Positions 23,400-38,006 of a DNA stretch of 64,000 bases are shown piece by piece (position 1 is the stretch's first letter; every line of letters starts with the position of its first letter). Position numbers and translations under genes: made by a program. Below the pieces are notes generated by a model. That model made no database searches. It saw only the letters and a list, made by a program, of their open reading frames with translations, and had not been told where the DNA came from. The stretch comes from an uncultured Bdellovibrionales bacterium (GTDB lineage Bacteria; Bdellovibrionota; Bdellovibrionia; Bdellovibrionales; Bdellovibrionaceae), in assembly GCA_903926205.1 (NCBI GenBank), contig CAIYID010000025.1, positions 1 through 64,000 on the forward strand, written 5' to 3'.

Positions 23400-24149
23400 T
23401 TATTTTTTTGCTTTTCCTTGAGCCGCGACTGAGGCCATCGCTGCTTTGACTGTTTCTGGGTCTCCCAAATATTCTTTTTTTACAACTTTAAGATTTTGAT
23501 CCAATTCATAAAGCAAGGGAACTCCCGTTGGAACATTCACTTCCATAATTTCTGCCGGAGTCATTCCTTCTAAATGCTGAATAAGAGCTCGCAAAGAATT
23601 ACCATGGGCCGCGATGAGAATTTTTCTTCCTTGCTTAATTTTTGGAGCAATCTCTCCGAGCCAGAGAGGGAGAAAACGTGCCACGGTGTCTTTCAAAGAC
23701 TCACCACTGGGCAAAAGTTGTGGATTAACATTTTTGTATTTTCTGTCATTACTCGGATGTCGCGGATCAGTTTTTTCCATCATCGGAGGTGGAGTGTCGT
23801 AACTCCGTCGCCAGATTTTAACTTGCTCCTCACCGTGCCGCGCTGCGGTTTCTGCTTTGTCTAGTCCAGTGAGACCACCGTAGTGTCTCTCGTTCAAACG
23901 CCAGTCCTTTGTCACAGGAAGCCAAAGCAAATCCATCTCTTCCTGAATAATCCAAAGCGTTCGAATCGCGCGTTTCAAAACGGATGTATAGGTTTCATCA
24001 AATTCAAAACCCATTTCTTTTAAAGTCTTTGCGGAGCGAAGAGCTTCGTCTCGACCTTTTTCTGATAAATCGACATCTTGCCATCCGGTGAAACGATTTT
24101 CTTGATTCCAAAGACTTTCGCCGTGTCGAACAAGCACGAGTTTATACAT
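23400..24149 (-). CDS. gpmA: 2,3-bisphosphoglycerate-dependent phosphoglycerate mutase
   Basis: Interconverts 2- and 3-phosphoglycerate in glycolysis and gluconeogenesis. 249 residues, typical for GpmA. Catalytic phospho-His in [20 protein letters not shown], the proton-donor Glu in [16 protein letters not shown], and the second His in [17 protein letters not shown]. First gene of a minus-strand operon with a small secreted protein and hutI. It diverges from sucA with about 90 bases between. Confidence 0.97.
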
Positions 24150-24237
24150 GACCTTTTCCTTCTGTTATGATTCTCTTGAACTGTACAAAATTGGTATCAT
24201 AAAGCGTTGAATTTGCAACTGTATTGTGAGGACAAAC

Positions 24238-26973
24238 ATGAGCTCAGATATGTCCAGTTTTACGACCCGCGAAAATTTAGATTATATTGAAAATCTTTAT
24301 CAGCAGTTCAAAGCTAATCCGAATTCAGTGACAACAGAGTGGCAAAATTTTTTTAAAGGTGTTGAATTTGCCTCGGAAGGCTCTTTTGGCCTCTCAGAAA
24401 AAGAGCTTGATGTTTATCATCTCATTTCTGCTTACAGAAACTATGGTCACTTTGAAGCCAATCTTAATCCTTTAACCAATGCTCCGGCACCGTCAGATCA
24501 GTTAACACTCTCCCGCTTTAATTTGTCCGATAAAGATTTAGATTCAAAATTTCAAATTGGCTCGATCATTAGCAAGCCAAATTCCACCCTTCGCGAAATC
24601 ATCGCACATCTTCGCAATTGCTACTGCGGAAAGCTGACCGTTCAGTGCGCGGAAGCACTCCCTGAGGTGCGAAGTTGGTTTATCCAGGAATTTGAACAAA
24701 ATAAAACTCCGTTCTCTCTCTCTGCGGCTGAGAAAAAAGAAGTGTACCATTCTTTGACTCGCACAGAGAGCTTAGAAAAATTCATTCACACTCGCTACGT
24801 CGGTGCAAAACGCTTTTCTATCGAGGGCGGAGATTCCCTTTTACCGATGATGGAAACTTTAGCTAGTCGCTCCTTGAAATTCGGCAATGAAGAGCTCGTC
24901 ATAGCCATGGCCCATCGAGGACGAGTCAATATGTTAGCCAATTTCATGGGAAAAGCCTTAGAAAATATTTTCTGTGACTTCAACGGGCCAACAGAATTAG
25001 CCGCCCCTATTGACGATTTTGATGGAGATGTGAAATATCACTTAGGATATTCTTCTGAAAAGCAAACTTCGAATGGCCTTTGTCACGTCACTTTGGCATT
25101 CAACCCTTCGCACTTAGAAGCCGTGAATCCCGTGGTCTTGGGAATGGCAAGGGCCGCGCAACGTCGTCGCGAGGACACTGAGAAAAGAAAAAAAGTTATT
25201 CCAATTTTAATTCACGGGGACGCAGCCTTTGCTGGCCAAGGAGTCGTTCTTGAAACTTTTCAAATGGCCTATGTCAAAGGCTACACTGTCGGCGGAACAA
25301 TTCACATAGCCATCGACAATCAAATCGGCTTCACCACTAATCCGGAGAACAGTCGTTCTTCTCATTACTGCTCTGATCCAGCGAAAGTTTTGGCAACTCC
25401 AGTTCTTCATGTCAACGGAGATGATGTGGAATCATGTGTGCGTGCTGCCGACATCGCCGTCCGTTTCCGCCAAGAGCGAGGCTGTGATATTGTCATCAAT
25501 ATGGTTTGCTATCGACGCTATGGCCATAATGAAGGTGACGAGCCCGCTTACACTCAGCCTTTGATGTATGAACTTATCAAGAAACATCCCACCACTCGCG
25601 AAATATACAGCAAACAATTATTGCGCGAAGGTGTGGTCGATCAAAACTACCTTGATTCTCTCATGAATGAAAAAATGGAAAATCTGCAAAAAATTTATGA
25701 AAACACAAAAGCCCATCCTCCAAAGGTGGCGCCAGTAAAATTCGAAGGGCCCTGGTCAGGACTCCGCAAAGCCAAAGCAGAAGATTTTGAAAAAACTTGG
25801 AACACGACAATTGACATTAATGTCTTAAAAAAAATTGGTAAAATGCTAGGCGAGGTTCCGGCTGAATTTACTCCGCATCCGAAGTTAATTAAATTGCTGG
25901 ATGCGCGACGAAACATGACCGAAGGTAAAGAACTCATCGACTGGGGTACGGCCGAACTATTGGCTTACGGCTCTTTGATTGCTGAAGGGAACTCTGTTCG
26001 AATTTCAGGGCAAGATGTCGTGCGAGGCACCTTCACTCACCGACACGCCGGTTTGTATGATTGCAAAACAGGTGAGCCCTATTTTGCACTCAAAAATATC
26101 AATCCGAAATTTGAATTTTGTGCCTATGATTCGGTTCTTTCGGAATACGGAGTGCTTGGTTTTGAATACGGCAACGCGATTTGCGACCCAAATTTTCTAA
26201 CCATTTGGGAGGCACAATTTGGCGATTTTGCCAACGGCGCTCAAATTATCATCGATCAATTTTTGATCAGTGGCGAGGCCAAGTGGCAACAGATGTCTGG
26301 TTTGGTATTGCTTTTACCCCATGGCTATGAAGGCCAAGGGCCTGAGCATAGCTCTGCTCGCTTAGAAAGATTTTTACAAATGTGCGCACAGTACAATGTG
26401 CAAGTGATGAACTTGACCACTCCCGCACAGATTTATCATTCTATGCGGCGACAGATCAAAAGACCATTCCGTAAGCCCATGATTGTGATGTCACCAAAAT
26501 CTTTACTTCGCCATCCCAAAGCGGTGTCTTCGATTGAAGAGCTGGCTAAAGGGAGTTTTCAAGAGGTCATTCCAGATAACCTGCTTAAAGAACCTAAAAA
26601 AGTGGAAACCCTGATTCTTTCGACTGGAAAAATTTACTACGATCTGCTCGAAGAACGAACTCAAAATAAAAGTGAACGCACGGCTTTAGTGCGCGTGGAG
26701 CAAATCTATCCAACGCCCATGAAGCAAATCACGGCTGCGATCAGATCTTATCCAAATTTGAAAAATGTTTTATGGGTTCAGGAAGAACCAAAAAACATGG
26801 GTGCTTATCAACATATTTACTTTCGACTTTCAGAGATTTTTATGAAGGAAGGTTTTACAAAAATTGGCCTGCACTACGTCGGCCGAGGAGAACGCAGCTC
26901 TCCGGCCACGGGCTCGCTCTACAAGCATAAAGCGGAGCAATCCGAATTAGTGAAAAATGCATTCTCGATTTAA
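24238..26973 (+). CDS. sucA: 2-oxoglutarate dehydrogenase E1 component
   Basis: Thiamine-diphosphate enzyme that decarboxylates 2-oxoglutarate and passes the succinyl group to the E2 lipoyl arm. 911 residues from the ATG at 24238, with GAGGA seven bases before; an upstream GTG in frame is less likely. N-terminal E2-binding segment (ENLDYIENLYQQFKANP), AMAHRGRVNMLANFMGK, the ThDP site from HGDAAFAGQGV to AIDNQIGFTT, RYGHNEGDEP, and in the C-terminal half RHAGLYD and EAQFGDFANGAQ. First gene of a complete operon with sucB and lpdA. Confidence 0.97.
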   Translation: MSSDMSSFTTRENLDYIENLYQQFKANPNSVTTEWQNFFKGVEFASEGSFGLSEKELDVYHLISAYRNYGHFEANLNPLTNAPAPSDQLTLSRFNLSDKDLDSKFQIGSIISKPNSTLREIIAHLRNCYCGKLTVQCAEALPEVRSWFIQEFEQNKTPFSLSAAEKKEVYHSLTRTESLEKFIHTRYVGAKRFSIEGGDSLLPMMETLASRSLKFGNEELVIAMAHRGRVNMLANFMGKALENIFCDFNGPTELAAPIDDFDGDVKYHLGYSSEKQTSNGLCHVTLAFNPSHLEAVNPVVLGMARAAQRRREDTEKRKKVIPILIHGDAAFAGQGVVLETFQMAYVKGYTVGGTIHIAIDNQIGFTTNPENSRSSHYCSDPAKVLATPVLHVNGDDVESCVRAADIAVRFRQERGCDIVINMVCYRRYGHNEGDEPAYTQPLMYELIKKHPTTREIYSKQLLREGVVDQNYLDSLMNEKMENLQKIYENTKAHPPKVAPVKFEGPWSGLRKAKAEDFEKTWNTTIDINVLKKIGKMLGEVPAEFTPHPKLIKLLDARRNMTEGKELIDWGTAELLAYGSLIAEGNSVRISGQDVVRGTFTHRHAGLYDCKTGEPYFALKNINPKFEFCAYDSVLSEYGVLGFEYGNAICDPNFLTIWEAQFGDFANGAQIIIDQFLISGEAKWQQMSGLVLLLPHGYEGQGPEHSSARLERFLQMCAQYNVQVMNLTTPAQIYHSMRRQIKRPFRKPMIVMSPKSLLRHPKAVSSIEELAKGSFQEVIPDNLLKEPKKVETLILSTGKIYYDLLEERTQNKSERTALVRVEQIYPTPMKQITAAIRSYPNLKNVLWVQEEPKNMGAYQHIYFRLSEIFMKEGFTKIGLHYVGRGERSSPATGSLYKHKAEQSELVKNAFSI

Positions 26974-27047
26974 GGACCAATTTGATTGTTCGATTTGAAT
27001 AGCCAAAACGGCTGTAAAAAAAGTTTTTTGAAAAAGGAAATTTGAGT

Positions 27048-28331
27048 ATGAAGTACGATGTAAAAGTTCCAGCAGTTGGAGAATCCATCACGGAAGCAAC
27101 AATTGGCAGCTGGATGAAAAAAAATGGTGAGGCTGTTAAGCGAAATGATGTTTTAATGAGTCTTGAAACTGACAAGGCCACTGTGGAAGTTGTGGCTGAG
27201 TATGATGGAGTTCTTTTTATTTCAGCAGAAGCAGGAAAAATTGTACCTATCGGTTCTGTCGTAGCTCAGATAGACTCGGAAGCAAAAGCGACCACCACGT
27301 CGACACCTGCCGCCTCAACGACGCCAACGACCAGCACGGTGTCGGCGCCCACCTCTAAGTCGGCCTCTGCTACCAAAGAAATCCATTCAGATTTAAAAAA
27401 TCATTTAAGCCCTGCCGTTCAGCGTATTGCAAGCGAACGAGGCCTTGATGCAAGTAGCCTGAGTGGCTCAGGTCGCGATGGGCGCCTCACCAAATCTGAC
27501 GTGATGAATGTTGTCGCGCAAACTGCGGCTCCGTCGCCAACGACACCTGCGCCAACCACTTCTCCTGCTGGAAAAAAAGAATCTTCTGTTCCTCCGACTG
27601 TTGACATGACCCTTCGTGGTCTTTCTAAGCAAGGTGATCAAAAACGAGTACCTATGACAACGATTCGCAAACGTATTGCGGAGCGCTTGCTGCAAAGCCA
27701 ACAGACAACAGCAACACTCACTACTTTCAATGAAATTGATATGAGCAAAATCACAGAGCTTCGCAATAAATACAAAGATAAGTTTAAAGAAAAATACGGC
27801 GTGTCTTTGGGCTTTATGGGAATCTTTGTAAAAGCCACTGTTGAAGCGCTGCAAGCAAGTCCTGCTGTAAATGCTTTCCTAGAAGGCAGCGAAATTGTAT
27901 ACAATAATTATTACAACATCGGGGTGGCCGTCAGCACGGAAAAGGGACTCATTGTTCCAGTCATTCGTGATGCCGATCTGATGACGGTGGCGCAAATTGA
28001 AGCGGCTATTCGAACTTTTGCACTTAAAGCTCGCGATGGAAAAATCAGTATCGATGATTTATCAGGCGGTACCTTTACTATTTCGAATGGCGGAGTCTTT
28101 GGCTCCCTGATGTCGACGCCTATTCTGAATCCTCCGCAATCTGGCATTTTGGGAATGCACAAAGTCGAAGACCGTCCCGTGGCCGTGAATGGAAAAGTAG
28201 AAATTCGCCCAATGATGTATGCGGCACTTTCTTATGATCACCGAATGATTGACGGCAAAGAAGCCGTGAGTTTCCTCGTTAAAATTAAAGAAGGCGTCGA
28301 AGATCCAGAGCGTTTACTTTTAGGAATTTGA
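27048..28331 (+). CDS. sucB: dihydrolipoyllysine succinyltransferase (E2 of OGDH)
   Basis: Core of the 2-oxoglutarate dehydrogenase complex; transfers succinyl from lipoyl-Lys to CoA. 427 residues from ATG 27048 (AAGGA upstream). A single lipoyl domain with Lys43 in [10 protein letters not shown], an Ala/Ser/Thr/Pro linker, a peripheral-subunit-binding domain ([15 protein letters not shown] to GRLTKSDV), a second Pro/Thr linker and the catalytic domain with [13 protein letters not shown] near the end. It lies 74 bases after sucA and 53 before lpdA. Confidence 0.96.
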
Positions 28332-28384
28332 ATTGTTAGATTGGGATTTAGTTTTTGTCTTATTTTTTAAACTGGAGTTAAATC

Positions 28385-29788
28385 GTGGCAAAATTTGATG
28401 TGATCTTCATTGGTTCGGGCCCCGGGGGTTATGTCGGTGCTATTCGGTGTGCTCAACTGGGATTAAAAACAGCCGTGATCGAAAAAGACGAAACTTTTGG
28501 CGGCACTTGTTTGAATGTGGGCTGCATTCCCTCTAAAGCCTTACTTGAAAGTTCCGAATTCTACCATCTTGCGGGACATGACGCCGCAGCTCATGGCGTG
28601 AAAATTTCCAAATTAGAATTTGATTTAACAAGCATGCTTTCTCGAAAAGAAAAAATCGTGAAGGATTTTACAAATGGAATTTCCTTTTTGTTTAAAAAAA
28701 ATAAGATTGAAAGCTATAAAGGGACGGGAAAAATATTAAATCCAGGTCTCGTTCAAGTCACCGCTGCGAATGGAACTAAAACTGAACTCGAAGCCACGAG
28801 TATTATTTGCGCCACTGGAAGTGTTCCGATACAACTTCCCTTTTTAAAATTTGACGAGAAACAAATTGTCTCTTCAACAGGGGCCTTGGCCTTAACAAAA
28901 GTTCCCAACGAACTCATCGTTGTCGGCGGCGGAGTGATTGGTCTTGAACTGGGCTCTGTCTGGCAACGTTTGGGAGCGAAAGTCACCGTGTTGGAATATG
29001 CCGATCGAATTTGTCCAATGATGGATTATCAAACTATCAATATCCTAAAAAAATCTCTCGAAAAACAAGGAATGAAATTCATCACTAAAGCGAAAGTGAC
29101 GGGCTCAGAAATAAAGGCTCCAAAAGTCGAACTGACTTATGAAGACCTCGAATCTCAGACTATAAAAAAATTGAGTGGAGATGTTGTTCTCGTTTCTACT
29201 GGACGGAAACCTTTTTCTGATAATTTGGGATTAGAAGAACTCGGAGTTAAAAAAGATCCTCGCGGGGTTGTTCTGGTTGATCAACACTTTCAAACAAATA
29301 TCCCTGGCATTTATGCCATCGGTGATTTAATTCCCGGTCCGATGCTAGCACACAAAGCTGAAGAGGAAGGAGTGGCTCTTGCTGAGCAATTAGCCGGACA
29401 AGCCGGACACATCAATTATGCAACTGTGCCTTCTGTGATTTACACTTTTCCAGAAGTTGCTTCGGTGGGACTTAGTGAAGAACAAGCCAAAGAAAAAGAA
29501 ATTCCTTTTGCCGTCGGGACTTTCCCATTTATAGCCAACGGACGCGCCAAAGCTTTAGGCACGACCGAAGGTCAAGTGAAGATCATCACTGATACTCGCT
29601 CTGATAAAATCATTGGCGGGCATATCGTTGGCCCTAGAGCCAGCGAATTACTAGGAGAAATTGTGATCGCCATGGAGTTTGGAGGCAGCAGCGAAGACCT
29701 TGCTCGTAGCTTCCATGCTCATCCAACGCTCAATGAAGTGGTGAGAGAAGCCGCGCTTGCGGTCGACAAGCGCGCACGACAAATGTGA
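28385..29788 (+). CDS. lpdA: dihydrolipoyl dehydrogenase (E3)
   Basis: Flavoprotein that reoxidises the lipoyl group with NAD. 467 residues. The start is a GTG at 28385 with CTGGAG upstream; no ATG precedes the FAD motif. FAD-binding IGSGPGGYVGAI, redox disulfide GGTCLNVGCIPSKALL, NAD-binding VVGGGVIGLELGSVW, second FAD motif GIYAIGDLIPG, and the dimer-interface catalytic pair in HAHPTLNEVVREAA. Last gene of the sucA-sucB-lpdA operon; it may also serve pyruvate dehydrogenase. Confidence 0.97.
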   Translation: MAKFDVIFIGSGPGGYVGAIRCAQLGLKTAVIEKDETFGGTCLNVGCIPSKALLESSEFYHLAGHDAAAHGVKISKLEFDLTSMLSRKEKIVKDFTNGISFLFKKNKIESYKGTGKILNPGLVQVTAANGTKTELEATSIICATGSVPIQLPFLKFDEKQIVSSTGALALTKVPNELIVVGGGVIGLELGSVWQRLGAKVTVLEYADRICPMMDYQTINILKKSLEKQGMKFITKAKVTGSEIKAPKVELTYEDLESQTIKKLSGDVVLVSTGRKPFSDNLGLEELGVKKDPRGVVLVDQHFQTNIPGIYAIGDLIPGPMLAHKAEEEGVALAEQLAGQAGHINYATVPSVIYTFPEVASVGLSEEQAKEKEIPFAVGTFPFIANGRAKALGTTEGQVKIITDTRSDKIIGGHIVGPRASELLGEIVIAMEFGGSSEDLARSFHAHPTLNEVVREAALAVDKRARQM

Positions 29789-29803
29789 TTCTTCGTCTAA
29801 ATG

Positions 29804-30337
29804 CTATCTTTTCAAATCAACTTCACATTTATCGATGTATTGTTCCAATTGATCTTGGCGCGAGTACAAAGTTCTTTTGTACTCTTTGAATCGCTCCAGA
29901 CGTTTTTGTAAATCTTCTTCCAAATAACCGATCAATTTTTTTGTTTGAGAATCACGAGCCACTTTCATTTGATCTTCATCAACAACAGGAGATTTGTCGG
30001 GAATAAAAGAAAGCTCCCCGGTTTTTAAGGCTTTGTTTTTTCGGCACGCCAAGGCTTTGCCATAAATTCCTTTGGAATCGTAATCGGGGCTTCCGTAAAC
30101 CTTATCTTGAAGACCATAAACTTCATCTTCGATTTTTACGAGTTCATTCACCAAATCATATTTGCGTTGAAAAACGGCCTGATCTTCGCCTCGGGTTCCG
30201 ATACTTTCATTCGGGCTAATAACTTGTTGATCGTTCAGTTTGGTATCAACAGATTCAATTTTTTTCTCTTTAGAAGAACAAGCTGAAATTTCAAATACAA
30301 AAACCAATAATAAGAAAGATTTAAAAATATTTTTCAT
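29804..30337 (-). CDS. lipoprotein of a local paralogous family (copy A)
   Basis: 177 residues from the ATG at 30337, which has GAGGA nine bases upstream; an ATG 15 bases earlier overlaps that site. Lipobox ISAC (Cys20) after a hydrophobic helix. The mature part shares with the two neighbouring lipoproteins: the ESVDTKL motif after the lipid Cys, SIGTR, a coiled-coil block ending VYGSPDY and G-Y-GKALACR, and a C-terminal block EEDLQKRLERFKEYK ending with a second Cys (DKCEVDL). Two conserved Cys suggest a disulfide. No known domain. It follows copy B on the same strand after 21 bases. Confidence 0.85.
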   Translation of the reverse strand: MKNIFKSFLLLVFVFEISACSSKEKKIESVDTKLNDQQVISPNESIGTRGEDQAVFQRKYDLVNELVKIEDEVYGLQDKVYGSPDYDSKGIYGKALACRKNKALKTGELSFIPDKSPVVDEDQMKVARDSQTKKLIGYLEEDLQKRLERFKEYKRTLYSRQDQLEQYIDKCEVDLKR

Positions 30338-30358
30338 TATATAAGTCCTCATTAGTAA

Positions 30359-31015
30359 TTAATTTTGATCGCCATCTGTTTTAGCCGGAACAGATTCCGC
30401 CTTTTTGCCAGCCTGAGCCGCGTAAGCCTCTTTTTTATCTTTCAGATCGGTTTGACACTTCCGTACTTCTTCATCAAACCAAACTTGTCGTTCTTGATAA
30501 GAGGATTTATAACCTTCAAATCTTTTGATGCGATCAGAAAGATACTCTTCACTCACCCCGACTAATTGTTTATTTTCATTTTTACCCATTTTCCCTGGAG
30601 TCACTTTTTCAATGATCGCTGAAATGGAGAGGTCCTCTCCTTTAGTCTTGATATCTTTAGCTGGAGGGGGCGTCACTTTGGAATCACCACCATATTTTTT
30701 CGATCGTGATTCATCCTTGCAGTCGCGAAGGACTCCATAAAGTCCACTGCGCCCAACGCTTTGATCTCCATAAATTTGAGCTTCCAAGGTATAAACTTCT
30801 GTTTGCAAATCTTTCAGATAGGTGGCCAAGCGCACTTTATTTTGCACGACCATTTCGCCCTTATCATTTAGGCCAAGCGATTGCCCCCCGCCGACGTCTT
30901 CTTTGTTGCTTAGTTTTGTTTCAACACTTTCAGCTTTGTTTGGATTTGTTGAACAAGCACTCAAACTCAATAAAAGAATAAGATTACAAAATACAACACT
31001 CGTTTTTTTCATCAT
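30359..31015 (-). CDS. lipoprotein of a local paralogous family (copy B)
   Basis: 218 residues; GAGG lies before a double ATG. Lipobox LSAC (Cys21). Shared family blocks: NKAESVETKLS after the lipid Cys, SLGLNDKGE, a helix ending QIYGDQS then GLYGVLRDCKDE, and EEYLSDRIKRFEGYK with KCQTDLKD. It differs from copy A by a Pro/Lys/Gly-rich middle (about 110-150) and a longer lysine/alanine tail. First gene of the A-B pair; it diverges from copy C. The A and B transcript leaves the 166-base divergent region at 31016-31181. Confidence 0.85.
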   Translation of the reverse strand: MMKKTSVVFCNLILLLSLSACSTNPNKAESVETKLSNKEDVGGGQSLGLNDKGEMVVQNKVRLATYLKDLQTEVYTLEAQIYGDQSVGRSGLYGVLRDCKDESRSKKYGGDSKVTPPPAKDIKTKGEDLSISAIIEKVTPGKMGKNENKQLVGVSEEYLSDRIKRFEGYKSSYQERQVWFDEEVRKCQTDLKDKKEAYAAQAGKKAESVPAKTDGDQN

Positions 31016-31181
31016 TAGCTACCTCACTGTGGTTAATGATAGTCTGCCAGTATGTACCGAGTCCACCCAAGCAAAGAATTTATCTTAAACACCTCGGCAA
31101 AGTGTCTTTTCAGCAACACCGAACTGCGGCTTGAATTTAAACCCTAAAAAGATTCAGAATATCGAATCGGGGGACCTTCCA

Positions 31182-31748
31182 ATGAAAACGAATCTATCGC
31201 TAACAGTTTTGATTATTCTCTTCACTCAAGCTGGACTTTTGGCCACGGGTTGCGCCAATCGCAATAAAGCCGACGTGATTGACACTGGCATGCAAAACTC
31301 TTCAAAAGTAAGTGAAAACTCCGGCGAGGCCATCGGTGTTCGCAACAAAGAATTTGTCTTACAAAAAAAGAAAAACCTGGCGGAGGAATTGCGCACGCTC
31401 GAAGAAAAGGTGCGTGAATTGGATGACCGTGTTTTTGGCTCCCGCGACTATGAGACTTATGGTCTCTGGGGACAACTTCGAGATTGTCGCAATAAATTGA
31501 AAGAAAAAAACTCCAGTTTAGAGGCAGGCTCTTTAGAACGAATGTCCGATGGCGATTATTTGCTTAATTGGAAGGCCAATGGCGATGCAAAAGCCGGTAT
31601 TGAAAAAACAACCGACAAGCTGGTTGCTCTTTCAGAGGAAGATTTAGACGATCACATTAAGAAACTGAATAAAGCTAAAGTTAAACTTCAAGACAAAGAG
31701 GATGAACTTCGCGAAAAGCTTTCTCAATGTAAGACCGCAACGAAGTAA
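31182..31748 (+). CDS. lipoprotein of a local paralogous family (copy C)
   Basis: 188 residues from the ATG at 31182, with GGGGGA just upstream; the longer frame from 31131 has no lipobox geometry. Signal with ATGC (Cys25). Mature blocks match copies A and B: NKADVIDTGM, AIGVRNKEFVLQKKKNLAEEL, VFGSRDYETYGLWGQLRDCRNK and EEDLDDHIKKLNKAK ending SQCKTATK. Mostly charged and coiled-coil-like. It is on the opposite strand from A and B and ends in a clear terminator. Likely an outer-membrane-attached periplasmic rod; function unknown. Confidence 0.85.
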   Translation: MKTNLSLTVLIILFTQAGLLATGCANRNKADVIDTGMQNSSKVSENSGEAIGVRNKEFVLQKKKNLAEELRTLEEKVRELDDRVFGSRDYETYGLWGQLRDCRNKLKEKNSSLEAGSLERMSDGDYLLNWKANGDAKAGIEKTTDKLVALSEEDLDDHIKKLNKAKVKLQDKEDELREKLSQCKTATK

Positions 31749-31784
31749 TTGCAGCTGAGAGTAAAACTCTGCTCAAACTAACTC

Positions 31785-31815
31785 CAAAACTCACTTCACG
31801 TGAGTTTTGTTTTTT
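31785..31815 (+). terminator. intrinsic terminator of lipoprotein C, inside the end of the FecR gene
   Basis: CAAAACTCAC at 31785-31794 pairs perfectly with GTGAGTTTTG at 31800-31809 over the loop TTCAC, then six T. The right arm and loop encode the last codons (THVK and stop) of the opposing FecR-domain gene. Confidence 0.8.
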
Positions 31816-32567
31816 GCAGCCGAATCAGCTTTTGAACTGTCTTTTATTTTCGAATCCGGTGCTCCCTCTTTTTTTCCATCTTTGGATTGAGCAGAGGACT
31901 CTTTGTTAGAATCACTCTCTTTTTGAGCAGATTCAATTGTGCCAAAAACATTCGCTTGCGTTTTTAAAGTCTGCAACTGCTCTTCTGAAAGAATCATTGG
32001 AGATTTCCCTTGATAAGTTCCAGAGCTACCTGTGAATTGAAAGCCCTTTTCGATAATCACAGAATCAGTAATTTTTCTTCCCACCATCTTTTCGCCAACT
32101 TCCACAACTCCTTCAAAAGTAGTGACTTGCATTTTATTCTCCCGATGCACCGTCAAAAATTCAGTTCCACGAATTCCAGCAACACCCGAGGGCGTAACAA
32201 GACGAAAATTTGGCTTATCATCTTTGTATTTATTTTTGATATTCGAAAGCAACTTTCCATCAAGAAGCAAAGTCGTATGTCCTGGCGGTGTTTTTGAAAC
32301 GTATTCTTTCAAATCCAGTTTCGAATTTTCACTCAGAATAAAAATATTTTGATCTTTCATAATGAGTTTAGCTGAAGCTTTGGCTTTTGCCTCTATCCGG
32401 TCACCCTCTTCAAGTTCCAGGCCGCGTGAAACTTTAAGCTCCACCTTGTTTCGAAGAATCAATAGGTCACCTTTAAAATCATCGACCTTACCAATGACTT
32501 CACCACCTAAAGCCATGGCGTTAAAAAATAATAATCCTATAAATAATACAGACTCAACTAACTTCAT
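31791..32567 (-). CDS. FecR-domain secreted protein
   Basis: 258 residues with a GGAGGA ribosome binding site. Signal peptide about 1-21 ending LGGE. A FecR-like beta domain covers about 25-190: VEGDRIEAKAKASAKLIMKDQN-type strands, the FecR signature around VTPSGVAGIRGTEFLT, and TFEGVVEVGEKMVG. The last 60 residues are a Lys/Ser/Asp-rich disordered tail. There is no anti-sigma transmembrane region, so it belongs with secreted structural FecR proteins rather than with sigma regulators. It is the third gene of a minus-strand group with two small secreted proteins. Confidence 0.85.
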   Translation of the reverse strand: MKLVESVLFIGLLFFNAMALGGEVIGKVDDFKGDLLILRNKVELKVSRGLELEEGDRIEAKAKASAKLIMKDQNIFILSENSKLDLKEYVSKTPPGHTTLLLDGKLLSNIKNKYKDDKPNFRLVTPSGVAGIRGTEFLTVHRENKMQVTTFEGVVEVGEKMVGRKITDSVIIEKGFQFTGSSGTYQGKSPMILSEEQLQTLKTQANVFGTIESAQKESDSNKESSAQSKDGKKEGAPDSKIKDSSKADSAAKNKTHVK

Positions 32568-32645
32568 ATTAATCCTCCGCTCACAGATTCTGTCATTTTT
32601 TAAGGATTTTGGTCAATCTCGAAGTATCGCTCAGAAATGAGCTAA

Positions 32646-33089
32646 TTATTCAATAGAACAAAGACCTTCAAGAATATTAAGTGTTCTTTTAAGTACGGGA
32701 GCCTCCGCTTCAAGCGGAGGTCGGCGATCCCATCGATGAATTAATTTTCGTTCATAGTCAGGACAGGACTCTTTTTTGAATTCTGAAAACATTGGAAAAT
32801 CGGTCACTGATGAAACCAAATTATCCAAATAGATTTGATCGTCAGTCAGCAGTCGAGGACTTTTTTTACGCACTGTTTTTATAACAAATAAAGTTTTTTC
32901 TAGTTGCAAGAATTTTTCTTTTAAACTTTTATGCTGGAGAAGATTTCGTGATAAATTCATCATTTCCGAATCCACCTCCTGACGAATTGTCAGTCCAGGA
33001 CTAGGTGTTTCTTTCTGCCCACGCAAAACCATCGGTGTTCCCACCAAAATCACAAAAGTTAAAGCGCTAAGTACGGTTCTGTTACACAT
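32646..33089 (-). CDS. small secreted protein of unknown family
   Basis: 147 residues; GGAGGG precedes the ATG. Signal peptide to about residue 24 (ALTFVILVGTPMVLRG). The mature part is mostly helical and basic, with two Cys (ESCPDYERK and the final GLCSIE). It overlaps the previous gene by 31 bases, which points to coupled translation, and precedes the FecR-domain gene by 78 bases. Not recognised. Confidence 0.75.
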   Translation of the reverse strand: MCNRTVLSALTFVILVGTPMVLRGQKETPSPGLTIRQEVDSEMMNLSRNLLQHKSLKEKFLQLEKTLFVIKTVRKKSPRLLTDDQIYLDNLVSSVTDFPMFSEFKKESCPDYERKLIHRWDRRPPLEAEAPVLKRTLNILEGLCSIE

Positions 33090-33406
33090 GCGCCCTCCTT
33101 ATGTTTTCTATTGAGTTCGTCTGCAGATTCCGCCATTTGGAGCAAATAATTTGTATCTCTTCCCGTTTTTTTGGAATAAATATAAAAATGGTGTGAAGGA
33201 CAAGACCGATTGGCCTCAAGGCTGTAGTTTTCAGTTGATGGAGGTTTTGTAGAAGCGAATTCCATTGAACCCGCTTCACCGACTAGATTTTCTCTGACTT
33301 CTTGGGAAGACTGGCCCGCCTGAGTTGACCATCGAAAAAAAATCACTGCCGTTAACATCGACAAAGCAACGAAACCGACAATAAGCAATCCTGAGCGATA
33401 ATACAA
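33059..33406 (-). CDS. small membrane-anchored protein of unknown family
   Basis: 115 residues from a TTG at 33406, chosen because a full AGGAGG lies five bases before it; the next ATG would cut into the hydrophobic helix. One N-terminal membrane helix (GLLIVGFVALSMLTAVIFF), then a periplasmic part with CPSHHFYIYSKKTGRDT and a second Cys near the end (GACVTEP). First gene of the group that ends with the FecR-domain protein. Function unknown. Confidence 0.7.
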   Translation of the reverse strand: MYYRSGLLIVGFVALSMLTAVIFFRWSTQAGQSSQEVRENLVGEAGSMEFASTKPPSTENYSLEANRSCPSHHFYIYSKKTGRDTNYLLQMAESADELNRKHKEGACVTEPYLAL

Positions 33407-33441
33407 AAAAGCCTCCTCAGCATTTTCCTTTCGGCTTTTTT
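33404..33441 (-). terminator. possible weak hairpin in the leader of the 115-residue gene
   Basis: AAAAAAGCC at 33405-33413 pairs with GGCTTTTTT at 33433-33441. On the minus strand it lies after hutU and encloses the AGGAGG and the start of the next gene. It could act as terminator for hutU or limit access to the ribosome binding site. The stem has only three G-C pairs, so this is uncertain. Confidence 0.3.
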
Positions 33442-33557
33442 GTTTAATTTCTGAATCTGACTTTAGCAGAGTCTGATTTTAGCATCGCATCGAAAAGTAT
33501 AACCTGAACTTTCCCAGACGAAAATCGAGCAAGCTTCCTGGCCGTAACTGTCAAATA

Positions 33558-35207
33558 TTATATCCAGAGCGAATGAACTCCGCGCTCTTTGGCTACAACT
33601 TTTGCTTCATCATAGCCCGCATCTAAATGTCGAAAAATTCCCATCGCCGGATCTGCCGTAAGAACGCGTTCAAGACGTTGGGCCGCTTCAGCCGTTCCGT
33701 CAGCCACAATCACCTGCCCCGCATGCTGACTGTATCCCATCCCAACTCCCCCGCCGTGATGGAAACTTACCCAGGTGGCACCACAAGCAATATTTGAAGC
33801 GAAGTTGAGTAAAGGCCAATCGCTGACAGCATCAGAACCATCTTTCATTGCCTCGGTCTCTCGGTTGGGCGAAGCCACAGATCCGCAATCCAAATGATCA
33901 CGACCGATAACAATTGGAGCGCTTACTTTGCCAGTGCGAACAAGCTCATTAAACATAAGCCCCGCTTTGGCGCGTTCACCGTATTCCAGCCAACAAATTC
34001 GTGCCGGCAAGCCTTGAAAGGCGATTCTTTTTTCCGCCATATCAAGCCAGCGTAATAAATCTTTTTTGTGAGAAAATATTTCGCGCATGGCTTGGTCAGT
34101 CACTTTAATATCGTTCGGATCACCGGAAAGTGCCACCCAACGGAACGGGCCACTTCCCTTGCAAAATAAAGGACGAATATAGGCTGGCACAAAACCTGGA
34201 AAAGAAAAGGCCTCTTTCACACCGTGGTCAAAAGCCACCGCTCTGATATTATTACCATAATCAAAAGTGATAGCGCCACGCTTTTTCATCTCGAGCATTC
34301 CTTGCACATGCTTGACGATGCTGGAGTAAACTTGCTCCAAATATTTTTTCTGGCTTGTCTTTCTTTCCTCAGCGGCTTGCTGAAGCGTCAAACCCTCAGG
34401 AATATAGCCAACGAGTGGATCGTGGGCTGAGGTTTGGTCCGTCAATAAATCAGGAATGAAGTTTTTATCGAGACATTGATGAATGACGGTGGCCATATTT
34501 CCTTCAAGAGCAATCGACTTCGCCTCACCATTCGCTGCATACTTTCGAGCCCGCGCTATTGCCTCATCTAAACTCGTGGCCACCTCATCAACATACTTTG
34601 TTTCTCGACGTTTTTCAATTCGGGTTGGATCGACATCCACCGCGAGCACGACCGCACCAGCAAAAACTCCCGCAAGAGGCTGTGCTCCACCCATTCCACC
34701 AAGTCCAGCAGTTAAAATTATTTTTCCTTTGAGACTTCCACCAAAATGCTGTCGGCCTGCTTCTGCAAAAGTTTCATAGGTTCCTTGAATAATTCCCTGC
34801 GTACCAATGTAAATCCAAGAGCCCGCCGTCATTTGTCCATACATCATAAGACCTTTTTTATCGAGCTCATGAAAATGATCCCAGGTCGCCCACTTTGGTA
34901 CTAAATTTGAATTGGCAATCAAAACCCGAGGGGCATCTTTATGTGTGCGAATAATTCCGATGGGTTTTCCACTCTGAACAAGAAGTGTTTCATCATTTTC
35001 CAAAACTTTAAGAGTCTCCAAAATTTTATCAAAGCATTCCCAATTACGTGCGGCTTTTCCAATCCCACCATAGACGACCAAATCTTCTGGGCGCTCTGCG
35101 ACCTGTGGATCTAAATTATTCTGAATCATGCGATAAGCCGCTTCTTGAAGCCAACCTTTGCAATTTAATTTGGTACCAGTAGGAGCACGAACCACTCGAG
35201 CAGACAT
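33558..35207 (-). CDS. hutU: urocanate hydratase
   Basis: Second enzyme of histidine breakdown: converts urocanate to 4-imidazolone-5-propanoate with tightly bound NAD. 549 residues, typical length. Motifs: [18 protein letters not shown] at the N-terminus, [31 protein letters not shown]-binding [17 protein letters not shown], and the late [20 protein letters not shown] and [16 protein letters not shown] with the conserved active Cys. A lone gene between unrelated genes; hutH and hutI are 6 and 11 kb away. Confidence 0.98.
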
Positions 35208-35295
35208 AAAAGCCTCCGTTTGTTATGACATTGGAATGCCATAGTTCCGGCAGAGTATAAACAGAAGCCGAGCTTAGGAGCGCGGCATTATTCTT

Positions 35296-36024
35296 TTAAA
35301 CGCTGAATGGAGTCTCACACCAAGCTTTGGATCGTGCCAAATCCTGCATCACATCTTGCACATAGAAGGATTCACCGAATTCGATTTGAGCTTGTATTGA
35401 AGGCTCCTTAAAAAGATCCATAACATGAGTCGGGAAAAAATCATTGTCAATGTAGGCCACTGGACGTTCCGGAGAATATTTCACTCTGAACAACTGAACT
35501 TTAATTTTTCCTTGATGCGCAATTTCAAAAGCCCCTTTTTTCCACTTTGCAGAAGGTCCCAAGGTGGTTGTTCCACTTGGAAAAATCACCAATTTTTTAT
35601 TTTCATTTTTTAAAGCCTCAATAATTTGTCCTCGCACGTTTTTTCGAGACTTATAGCTTTCACGTTGAACAAAAATCGTTTCACATTTCACAGCACCTTT
35701 GCCGATAACTGGCCAGTATTTGACCTCTTGCTTGCTGACAAAGCAGCAGCTCGGCTCTGTGTTCATCACTAAAGGAATATCCAAATAACTGGTATGATTA
35801 CCGACTAAAATTATAGATTCTGATGGTGTCTGCATTCGCTTTAGCTTTTGAACAGATTCAAAATCAAAAATTTGGCCCGAAGCTTTTACTTCGACCTTCA
35901 TCAATTGAAAAATTTGCTGAGTCCAACTTGCCTTTAAGGCGCGGACATCAGCGCCTTTTTGTTGAGACAACTTTAAGTGAACCCAGCTGATTTTAAAAAT
36001 TGTGAGAAATTTAAAAAAATCCAA
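35296..36024 (-). CDS. 1-acyl-glycerol-phosphate-type acyltransferase (OlsA-like)
   Basis: 242 residues from a TTG at 36024 (AGGAG 12 bases before, just ahead of the stop of the upstream gene); the frame runs back to 36057 but then overlaps that gene. Motif I NHTSYLDIPLV (His-x4-Asp) and motif III in FPSGTTTLG, where the usual Glu of EGTR is replaced by Ser, give the PlsC fold. It sits directly after an OlsB-like gene. In ornithine lipid synthesis OlsB adds a hydroxyacyl group to ornithine and OlsA adds the second acyl chain, so the pair points to that pathway; plain lysophosphatidate acyl transfer is the alternative. Confidence 0.75.
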   Translation of the reverse strand: MDFFKFLTIFKISWVHLKLSQQKGADVRALKASWTQQIFQLMKVEVKASGQIFDFESVQKLKRMQTPSESIILVGNHTSYLDIPLVMNTEPSCCFVSKQEVKYWPVIGKGAVKCETIFVQRESYKSRKNVRGQIIEALKNENKKLVIFPSGTTTLGPSAKWKKGAFEIAHQGKIKVQLFRVKYSPERPVAYIDNDFFPTHVMDLFKEPSIQAQIEFGESFYVQDVMQDLARSKAWCETPFSV

Positions 36025-36032
36025 AGTAATAA

Positions 36033-36860
36033 TTAAACTCCTCCGACGCGCTTCCAAAGATGCTTACGCACATCACTTTTTTGCAGGATGGTTAAAAAGT
36101 CAATGCACTTATAATCCTTGTCATAGGCCGGTTCCCCGCCGATAAAGGCTCCCAGGTTCAAATAAGAACGACACAATCCAGGAATAAGTAACTCAGCCTC
36201 AGCTCTTTCTGCAAGAGACAAAGGATTCTGAAAACTTGGAATCCAAAAATTCAAATTTGGCATCGTGTATTCCAATGTGGGTGGCGCAAAAAACTGAGGA
36301 GCAATTCTATTTTCTTCAAGAAAATATCTATAGAGCAAGGCCGCTTCCCTCGGATTTTCAGTTTTCACGGTGGCACAGCCAAAAAGAACTTCTGCATTGG
36401 TCGCCATCATATAATCGGCGATGCCTTTCCAGAGTAAAGAAATCAACATTCCTCGTCGATAATCTTTGTGAATGCAGGCTCGACCGAGTTCTAATTTCAC
36501 ACCTGGTTGCGCCATTATTCTTGCCATCATAAATTCATTTTGAGAATAAAAACGATCAGAAAAAAGCGAACAATTCAATCGATACGTACCAACCACTAGA
36601 TTCTTTTTAGTATCTATAATAATTAAGTGGTCGCAGGAAGCATCAAACTCATCAACGTCGAGCCCATAGGATTTCGTTTTATGTAGCATTTCTCGATGAA
36701 AAATCTCGTAGCGCAGCTCTAGTGCGGCTCGTAACTCCGCTGTGTCACTCACAGTCTTATAGACGAAATTCCCAACTTTATTTTCAATTTTTATTTTGGG
36801 TTTAAATTTGGATACCTTGTTAACACGCATATGGTACATTGATGTTAAAGTCGCTAACAT
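36033..36860 (-). CDS. GNAT-family N-acyltransferase (OlsB-like)
   Basis: 275 residues from the ATG at 36860 with AAGGGGG upstream. The text RAALELRYEIFHREM, DEFDASCDHLIIID, GTYRLNCS and LGRACIHKDYRRGMLISLLWKG matches the hemolysin/OlsB branch of GNAT enzymes (Acetyltransf_5), which use acyl-ACP to acylate the amino group of ornithine or related amino acids. The C-terminal 60 residues carry extra conserved text (LCRSYLNLGAFIGGEPAYD). It is immediately followed by an acyltransferase, the olsB-olsA order. Substrate is inferred. Confidence 0.75.
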   Translation of the reverse strand: MLATLTSMYHMRVNKVSKFKPKIKIENKVGNFVYKTVSDTAELRAALELRYEIFHREMLHKTKSYGLDVDEFDASCDHLIIIDTKKNLVVGTYRLNCSLFSDRFYSQNEFMMARIMAQPGVKLELGRACIHKDYRRGMLISLLWKGIADYMMATNAEVLFGCATVKTENPREAALLYRYFLEENRIAPQFFAPPTLEYTMPNLNFWIPSFQNPLSLAERAEAELLIPGLCRSYLNLGAFIGGEPAYDKDYKCIDFLTILQKSDVRKHLWKRVGGV

Positions 36861-36980
36861 AATCCCCCTTTTTCTTTTGATCAAAGTGTAAAGGATTTTG
36901 TGTTAGCGTACTGTCAGAACATCGCAAGAGTATGGTCAAGGGCCGCGATCAATGATTAAATTCAAAGGATGTCGTCTATT

Positions 36981-38006
36981 ATGTACCCTCACAAGCTTTA
37001 CGAGATTGACCAGCTTTTGGCAAGAGCCCAAGAACTCGGAAGCCTGGCAAGGCTCGAAACTCTGGCTACAGTGAAAGACACAAAAGGCGAGGAATTTCCG
37101 ATCCACAAGCTCACCCTTGGTAGTGAAGATCCCGCCGCACCGGTTTTAGGTTTTATCGGCGGAGTTCATGGATTGGAAAGAATAGGCTCACAAGTTTGCA
37201 TTGCTTATTTGAATTCCATCGCAAAAACTTTACTCTGGGATGAAATCACTCAACAGGCACTCAAAAAAATTAGGATTTTTTTTATTCCGATGGTGAATCC
37301 CACTGGAGTGGTTCACCTAACCAGATCAAATGCTCAGGGTGTTGACCTGATGAGAAACTCCCCGACAGAAGGAACCAATACAAACTTTCTTTTGGGCGGC
37401 CATCGAATTTCACCAAGACTTCCTTGGTACCGCGGACCAAATATTGGAGAAATGGAAATCGAATCAAAAGCACTGGTTGAAAGTGTTTTAAAAGAGCTCG
37501 AACGGAGTGTTTGTGCCGTCACTATTGATGTGCACTCAGGCTTCGGGATGCAAGATCAACTTTGGTTGCCTTACGCTAAAACAAAACGACCCTTCCCGCA
37601 CTTGGCAAAAGCCCATGCTCTTTTTGATTTATTTGATCACACTTATCCTTATCATTTTTATAAAATTGAACCCCAAGCGACCAATTACACTACTCACGGT
37701 GATCTTTGGGATTATATCTATGATGAATCCATGGCAAGACGAAATGATTTTACTTATTTACCCTTAGCCCTTGAAATGGGCTCCTGGAATTGGATCAAAA
37801 AAAATCCACTGCAATTATTCAGCTCAACGGGTCCCTTTAATCCAATTAAAAAACACCGTGAACGACGAATTTTAAGAAGACACAATACTTTTTTTGAATT
37901 TCTTATTAAAGCTATGAGCTCTTCTTCAGTTTGGGATAATTTGAATGAGGATCAGATCAATAAACATGAATTGCGAGCCAAAGAAAGGTGGTATCAAAAT
38001 GACTAA
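36981..38006 (+). CDS. zinc carboxypeptidase-like protein (M14 fold)
   Basis: 341 residues from the ATG at 36981, chosen over the ATG at 36969 which overlaps the AAAGGA site. Zinc ligands appear in GGVHGLERIG (His and Glu) and in TIDVHSGFG (His), and a late Glu in LALEMGSWNW is the expected catalytic base, all in the order of M14 enzymes. No signal peptide, so it acts in the cytoplasm; perhaps a murein-peptide or amino-acid amidase. It overlaps the next gene by eight bases. Confidence 0.8.
   Translation: MYPHKLYEIDQLLARAQELGSLARLETLATVKDTKGEEFPIHKLTLGSEDPAAPVLGFIGGVHGLERIGSQVCIAYLNSIAKTLLWDEITQQALKKIRIFFIPMVNPTGVVHLTRSNAQGVDLMRNSPTEGTNTNFLLGGHRISPRLPWYRGPNIGEMEIESKALVESVLKELERSVCAVTIDVHSGFGMQDQLWLPYAKTKRPFPHLAKAHALFDLFDHTYPYHFYKIEPQATNYTTHGDLWDYIYDESMARRNDFTYLPLALEMGSWNWIKKNPLQLFSSTGPFNPIKKHRERRILRRHNTFFEFLIKAMSSSSVWDNLNEDQINKHELRAKERWYQND

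What the first reader, a model, noticed from the sequence alone, without database searches (positions are those of the whole stretch)
29804..31748. Cluster of three paralogous lipoproteins with two conserved cysteines
Copies A, B and C share a post-lipid motif, a coiled-coil centre with G-[LI]-[YW]-G and a Cys, and a C-terminal Cys block, although they differ in the middle. A and B are on one strand, C on the other. They sit next to a FecR-domain protein and two small secreted proteins, so this 3.6 kb could be an undescribed envelope module.
Basis: seen in the sequence. Interest (0 to 1): 0.55.

Follow-up and report, generated by a model that had tools for sequence, protein, structure and literature searches.

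The report
Two-cysteine lipoprotein trio in Bdellovibrio relatives
Three neighbouring genes encode related membrane-anchored proteins of a family that the searched databases do not describe but that is common in Bdellovibrio relatives; the family looks real and unstudied, while the proposed larger gene module around the three genes does not hold up.

Summary
A (29804-30352 -), B (30359-31015 -) and C (31182-31748 +) are paralogous lipoproteins, 28-29% identical (BLASTP E 1e-18 to 3e-24). No curated Pfam or NCBIfam model, nor any PDB sequence, recognises them. The family occurs in 45 of 58 relatives and 114 of 367 other genomes of the phylum, mostly as one copy. The lipid cysteine and two more are present in 99 of 99 members compared; 90 members have two non-lipid cysteines, nine have four, none an odd number, as disulfides would require. 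B belongs to a subclade in which 8 of 11 copies adjoin another family gene, tandem (like A) or divergent (like C).
The "3.6 kb envelope module" is not supported: no FecR gene was found near the family in relatives, and the 147-aa gene belongs to an lpd-hutU backbone which, in the ten loci read, lacks A-B-C and FecR.
Best mechanism: outer-membrane-anchored, disulfide-locked helical scaffold lipoproteins, B working with an adjacent partner. The anatomy is shown; function and complex are inferred.

The parts
29804..30352 (-). Lipoprotein A, 177-182 aa; lipobox Cys codon 30280-30278, conserved Cys codons 30046-30044 and 29827-29825
   Evidence: ORF; paralogue of B and C; 6 bp downstream of B on the same strand
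30359..31015 (-). Lipoprotein B, 218 aa; lipobox Cys codon 30955-30953, conserved Cys codons 30721-30719 and 30457-30455; member of the B-type subclade
   Evidence: ORF; subclade support 97/88 in the careful tree
31182..31748 (+). Lipoprotein C, 188 aa from ATG 31182; lipobox Cys codon 31251-31253, conserved Cys codons 31485-31487 and 31728-31730; divergent from B
   Evidence: ORF listed from TTG 31131; signal peptide and homology begin at the ATG
31016..31181 (.). Divergent intergenic region between B and C; one weak sigma-70-like match on B's strand at 31065-31036
   Evidence: 10 promoter-like matches in the scanned region against 6.6 expected, sd 3.1, so weak
31785..31809 (.). Terminator-like stem (10 pairs), listed on both strands, between the convergent ends of C and FecR
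   Evidence: terminator-like sites 8 found, 4.1 expected, sd 2.0
31791..32567 (-). FecR-domain protein, neighbour; not part of a conserved module
   Evidence: PF04773 E 9.2e-12; not found near the family elsewhere
32646..33089 (-). 147-aa secreted protein, neighbour; belongs to the lpd-hutU backbone of some relatives

Best explanation
A, B and C are members of an undescribed lipoprotein family of the Bdellovibrionota. SHOWN by sequence or model: lipobox, a low-confidence (flexible-looking) N-terminal tether of about 20-30 residues, a mostly helical core ending in a long C-terminal helix, and an invariant cysteine pair; most genomes that have the family have one copy, and every adjacent pair found includes a B-type copy. 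INFERRED: the two cysteines form a disulfide that pins the helix after the G-[LI]-[YW]-G turn to the C-terminal helix; the protein is anchored in the outer membrane facing the periplasm and acts as a small structural scaffold or adaptor rather than as an enzyme; in B-type lineages a once self-sufficient protein works together with a diverged neighbour, and this genome carries a neighbour at both positions (tandem A and divergent C).
For: Three Cys columns 99 of 99; no other column is invariant, the next best is a Gly in 98 of 99. Cys count from the lipobox on is 3 in 90 and 5 in 9 of 99; the nine are long forms whose extra C-terminal domain brings two more. Residue +2 is Ser 49, Ala 32, Lys 14, Thr 2, Arg 1, Gly 1, never Asp, of 99. 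AlphaFold2: tether pLDDT below 50, ten-residue helix blocks up to 88 and 93. Adjacent family genes occur in 8 loci, and all 8 include a B-type copy: tandem in the window, G018, G021, G195, G205, G206, divergent in the window, G008, G009; G007, G033, G036 have a B-type copy alone. All 16 genomes with two or more matches were fetched. In 11 of 11 genomes with a B-type copy no family match was found elsewhere. No enzyme family matches.
Against: No experimental data. Both AlphaFold2 models are modest (mean pLDDT 64.8 and 69.7, pTM 0.55 and 0.62), rest on four sequences, and differ after the tether (strands in one, helix in the other). Foldseek finds nothing at E up to 0.001. The outer-membrane sorting rule is recalled from E. 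coli. Three genomes manage with a single B-type gene. The tandem partners of G018, G021, G195, G205 and G206 group as sister to the B-type copies (15 rows, 96/93), but A does not fall among them: the tree joins A to C by long branches (86/62), while A+tandem (p 0.335), C+divergent (0.638) and A+divergent (0.594) are all not rejected. So the neighbours may come from separate duplications.
Confidence: 0.4

Rival explanations
1. Plain local duplication: A, B and C are redundant or diverging homomeric lipoproteins that happen to have stayed together; there is no heteromer, and A and C evolve fast because they are relaxed.
For: A and C have very long end branches (2.56 and 2.44 against a median of 0.25) and no shown orthology with the partners in other genomes; G007, G033 and G036 have a B-type copy alone; tandem partners look like duplicates of B-type copies.
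Against: Adjacency is confined to loci with a B-type copy, 8 of 11 of which have it; both Cys are kept in all nine neighbours, so they are not decaying.
Confidence: 0.38
2. The first reader's module: A-B-C, FecR and the two small proteins form one envelope system.
For: They are adjacent in this window; FecR-domain proteins and lipoproteins are both exported.
Against: No FecR found near a family gene in relatives (nearest on a shared contig about 41 kb; on different contigs of fragmented genomes the distance is unknown); ten lpd or 147-aa loci hold neither A-B-C nor FecR; C and FecR are convergent with a terminator-like stem between them.
Confidence: 0.04
3. Surface-exposed or predation-related lipoproteins (adhesion to or protection from prey).
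For: The phylum is rich in predators (recalled); rapid divergence of A and C.
Against: The core is well conserved in the single-copy form, and nothing in sequence or neighbours points to the surface. Lifestyle of the genomes was not examined.
Confidence: 0.1
4. Periplasmic chaperone with long helices, working like prefoldin or Skp.
For: Model of B has strands and a long C-terminal helix; prefoldin chains appear among the weak Foldseek rows.
Against: Those rows have E 8.3 and 6.7, i.e. chance; many other coiled coils score the same or better.
Confidence: 0.06

Closest known systems
Generic bacterial lipoproteins (Lgt/LspA lipobox proteins)
   Same: Signal peptide, lipobox Cys (L, V, I, F or M at -3 in 83 of 99, G, A or S at -1 in 90 of 99), flexible-looking tether behind it
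   Different: No curated lipoprotein family matches; NCBIfam hits of A, B and C mostly cover the N-terminal part and all lie far below cut-off
YkyA (PF10368), cell-wall-binding lipoprotein
   Same: Weak match of C's last helix (E 0.023)
   Different: 14.9 bits against a cut-off of 28.8, 36 residues only: probably a coiled-coil chance match
Prefoldin / Skp-like chaperones
   Same: Long helices and strands in one model
   Different: No significant structural match; lipid anchor and invariant Cys pair
FecR-domain proteins (PF04773), the neighbour
   Same: Adjacent in this window
   Different: Not a family member and not a conserved neighbour

Membership tests
Bacterial lipoproteins | Signal peptide ending in a lipobox Cys | tested here: met
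   Cys column 99 of 99 with G, A or S before it in 90 of 99
Bacterial lipoproteins | Actual lipid modification and membrane location | not testable with these tools
   Needs labelling or fractionation
Any Pfam or NCBIfam family | Score above the curated cut-off | tested here: not met
   A, B and C: every listed match below cut-off. 56 aligned members: NCBIfam none at E up to 0.01; Pfam three families matched by 6, 1 and 1 members, best E 5.7e-4 to TSNAXIP1_N, cut-offs not shown there
Family with a solved structure | Sequence or fold match in the PDB | tested here: not met
   hmmsearch of A2: 0 at E up to 1; Foldseek: 0 at E up to 0.001, on modest models
Prefoldin/Skp-like chaperone | Fold match | tested here: inconclusive
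   No significant match, but model confidence is modest
Anti-phage defence protein | PADLOC model | tested here: not met
   0 families for A, B, C at E up to 0.01
B-type subclade (named here) | Groups with the G007/G033/G036 and G008/G009/G018/G021/G195/G205/G206 copies | tested here: met
   B: 11 rows in the quick tree, SH-aLRT 91; 10 rows in the careful tree, 97/88. A and C fall outside it; their placement is unresolved

The most novel reading that the evidence does not exclude
A Bdellovibrionota outer-membrane scaffold in which a single-copy, disulfide-locked lipoprotein split, in one lineage, into an obligate B plus partner heteromer, with this genome carrying a three-part version (tandem A and divergent C).
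Probability: 0.24. Interest if true: 0.5.

Novelty: new member of a known kind. Interest (0 to 1): 0.3.

Why it matters
It adds a widespread, well-conserved and uncurated lipoprotein family to the envelope inventory of Bdellovibrionota, with a cheap handle (two invariant cysteines; a single copy upstream of an S1-domain gene in G036, a genome of the size recalled for B. bacteriovorus HD100) for a gene-removal test in a laboratory strain.

Tried and rejected
Module with FecR and small proteins: tested by searches and gene order, rejected. Known family: none found. Mobile origin: tblastn of C against plasmids gave no match; the viral-contig search could not run. Internal duplication (strand-helix-Cys twice): the in-register profile alignment of the two halves scores 15.1, E 0.013, but 1 of 20 column shuffles scores higher (16.1), so not shown. 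Orthology of A and C with the partners in other genomes: unresolved (the C+tandem test did not finish). Literature: six searches, of which I saw titles and starts of abstracts of the rows listed (15 of 162, 15 of 16, 12 of 13, all in the others); none names such a family; one search was swamped by a drug name, and the HD100 locus tag was not established. Neighbours of the single-copy form (an Hsp33-cluster gene in 11 loci, a 318-365-aa protein directly downstream in 7 loci) follow taxonomy and gave no function.

Full report
WHAT IS THERE. C is better started at ATG 31182. BLASTP pairs A-C, A-B and B-C at 28-29% identity with E 7e-23, 3e-24 and 1e-18. Searching the window's own genome (99.96% complete, 94 contigs) with C returns just these three places. 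The paralogues are too diverged to be an assembly duplication.

THE FAMILY. A profile of the three finds matches in 46 of 59 genomes including the window's own, so in 45 of 58 relatives; a 56-member profile finds 115 of 368 genomes of the phylum including the own, so 114 of 367. Of those 115, 99 have one match and 16 have two or more. Adjacent copies occur in eight (G000, G008, G009, G018, G021, G195, G205, G206), and three adjacent copies only in G000. One relative is a named Bdellovibrionaceae MAG (L034; its contig length equals that of G034:C14). G036 has 3,782,950 bases, which I recall as the length of B. bacteriovorus HD100; that identification rests on recall. Every Pfam and NCBIfam match of A, B and C is below its cut-off. 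Of 56 members, none matches NCBIfam at E up to 0.01; in Pfam 6, 1 and 1 members match three coiled-coil or unrelated families, best E 5.7e-4. No PDB chain matches at E up to 1. Whether the family reaches other phyla was not tested beyond the pattern scan, which returned one locus, and tblastn of C against plasmids, which returned none.

CYSTEINES. I read 99 members (of the 133 matches). Three columns are Cys in every row: the lipobox, the one after G-[LI]-[YW]-G, and the one near the end of the C-terminal helix. No other column is invariant (a Gly in 98). From the lipobox on, proteins have three Cys in 90 cases and five in nine, so two or four beyond the lipid one. The nine are long forms (286-315 residues) whose extra C-terminal domain carries two Cys; they fall both in the B-type subclade (L077, L084, L085) and in a family-f4 group (L062, L105, L107, L109, L116, and L083, which has a suspiciously long branch). 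The even number of non-lipid Cys is the best sign of disulfides; no direct test was possible.

STRUCTURE. AlphaFold2 on B with three other sequences gives mean pLDDT 64.8, pTM 0.55, and on the single-copy type L034 69.7 and 0.62. Both have a low-confidence tether (residues 1-23 or 1-30) and a long C-terminal helix (136-187 or 124-163); they differ in the segment after the tether. Foldseek against the PDB returns nothing at E up to 0.001 for either. No Asp is seen at +2 in 99 members, which by the E. coli rule (recalled) would send them to the outer membrane.

ADJACENT PAIRS. In the quick tree of 99 rows B sits in an 11-row group (SH-aLRT 91); in the careful tree of 72 rows the same group, one HD100-like row having been left out, has support 97/88. 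Eight of the 11 adjoin another family gene: downstream on the same strand in the window (A), G018, G021, G195, G205, G206, and divergent in the window (C), G008, G009; G007, G033 and G036 have none. The tandem gaps are -43 to +27 bases between the ORFs as listed. Put the other way, all eight loci with adjacent copies include a B-type copy; the remaining 79 rows (99 less 11 B-type and 9 neighbours) have no family neighbour in the DNA fetched, which for some ends at a contig end. In the 11 genomes no match elsewhere was found, although G009 is only 72% complete. This suggests, but does not show, that B and its neighbour share one task. Against a common origin of the neighbours: the five tandem partners of other genomes form a sister group of the B-type copies (15 rows, 96/93), the two divergent partners fall with the single-copy types, and A and C join each other by long branches. 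Holding A with the tandem partners (p 0.335), C with the divergent ones (0.638) or A with the divergent ones (0.594) is not rejected either, so their origin is open.

THE MODULE. FecR homologues occur in 42 of 58 relatives. On shared contigs the nearest to a family gene is about 41 kb away (G052:C3; next 58 kb in G050:C24); in many fragmented genomes the two lie on different contigs. In the 49 neighbourhoods read, most of 16 kb, no ORF clustered with the window's FecR protein. The 147-aa protein is in 14 of 58. Ten lpd or 147-aa loci of relatives were read (L125-L134): none holds a match to A, B, C or FecR at E up to 1e-4. In six of the ten (G012, G015, G019, G036, G195, G206) the 147-aa gene lies within about 3 kb of lpd; in G015 it directly adjoins lpd; in G015 and G019 hutU follows as in the window. 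In four (G008, G013, G018, G205) no 147-aa match was seen. The window thus has A-B-C-FecR in a gap of an lpd to hutU backbone that some relatives share. G001, the only other member of the genus, has a FecR homologue (39% over 181 aa in L124) but no family gene or other tested window gene in that stretch; at 54% completeness this says little. C and FecR are convergent with a terminator-like stem between them. GC over the cluster (0.39-0.42) is near that of its surroundings (0.38-0.48). No Rfam match in 24000-38000 at gathering scores.

LITERATURE. Six searches of the held library: listings only, apart from passages found by word in PMC12546842 and PMC12228718. Nothing that I saw describes this family. 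The HD100 gene's locus tag was not established, so published expression data could not be read for it.

VERDICT. A real, uncurated lipoprotein family, widespread in its phylum, with a striking cysteine rule, locally expanded here. The gene module is not supported. The heteromer reading is a testable inference, not a result.

Noticed in passing
window 33059-33406 (-): The 115-aa protein weakly resembles the first and last parts of a 454-aa protein that precedes the 147-aa gene in G015 (L134): 53% over 19 residues (E 0.002) and 48% over 29 (E 7e-4); the 413-aa counterpart in G019 (L133) matches at E 0.007. It may be a shortened remnant.
   Followed up: partly
L062, L105, L107, L109, L116, L077, L084, L085: Long forms of the family carry an extra C-terminal domain of roughly 115-130 residues with two Cys of its own, in two separate parts of the tree.
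   Followed up: partly
L035, L036, L037, L046, L050, L064, L071: A 318-365-aa protein lies directly downstream of the single-copy lipoprotein (gap -1 to 92 bases) in families f6 and f10; the one member scanned has no Pfam match at E up to 0.001.
   Followed up: partly
L072, L073, L051, L052: A small protein, weakly like DUF4156 (below cut-off in the two scanned), adjoins the family gene.
   Followed up: partly
L077:4939-6006 (-): A TIR-domain protein (PF13676, E 1.7e-16) follows 4 bases after the tandem pair in G021.
   Followed up: no
L039, L040, L043, L044, L047, L053, L054, L056, L059, L061, L067: A gene of one cluster, Hsp33 in the member scanned (L039), lies near the single-copy lipoprotein in 11 loci and is the next ORF in 8 of them.
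   Followed up: partly
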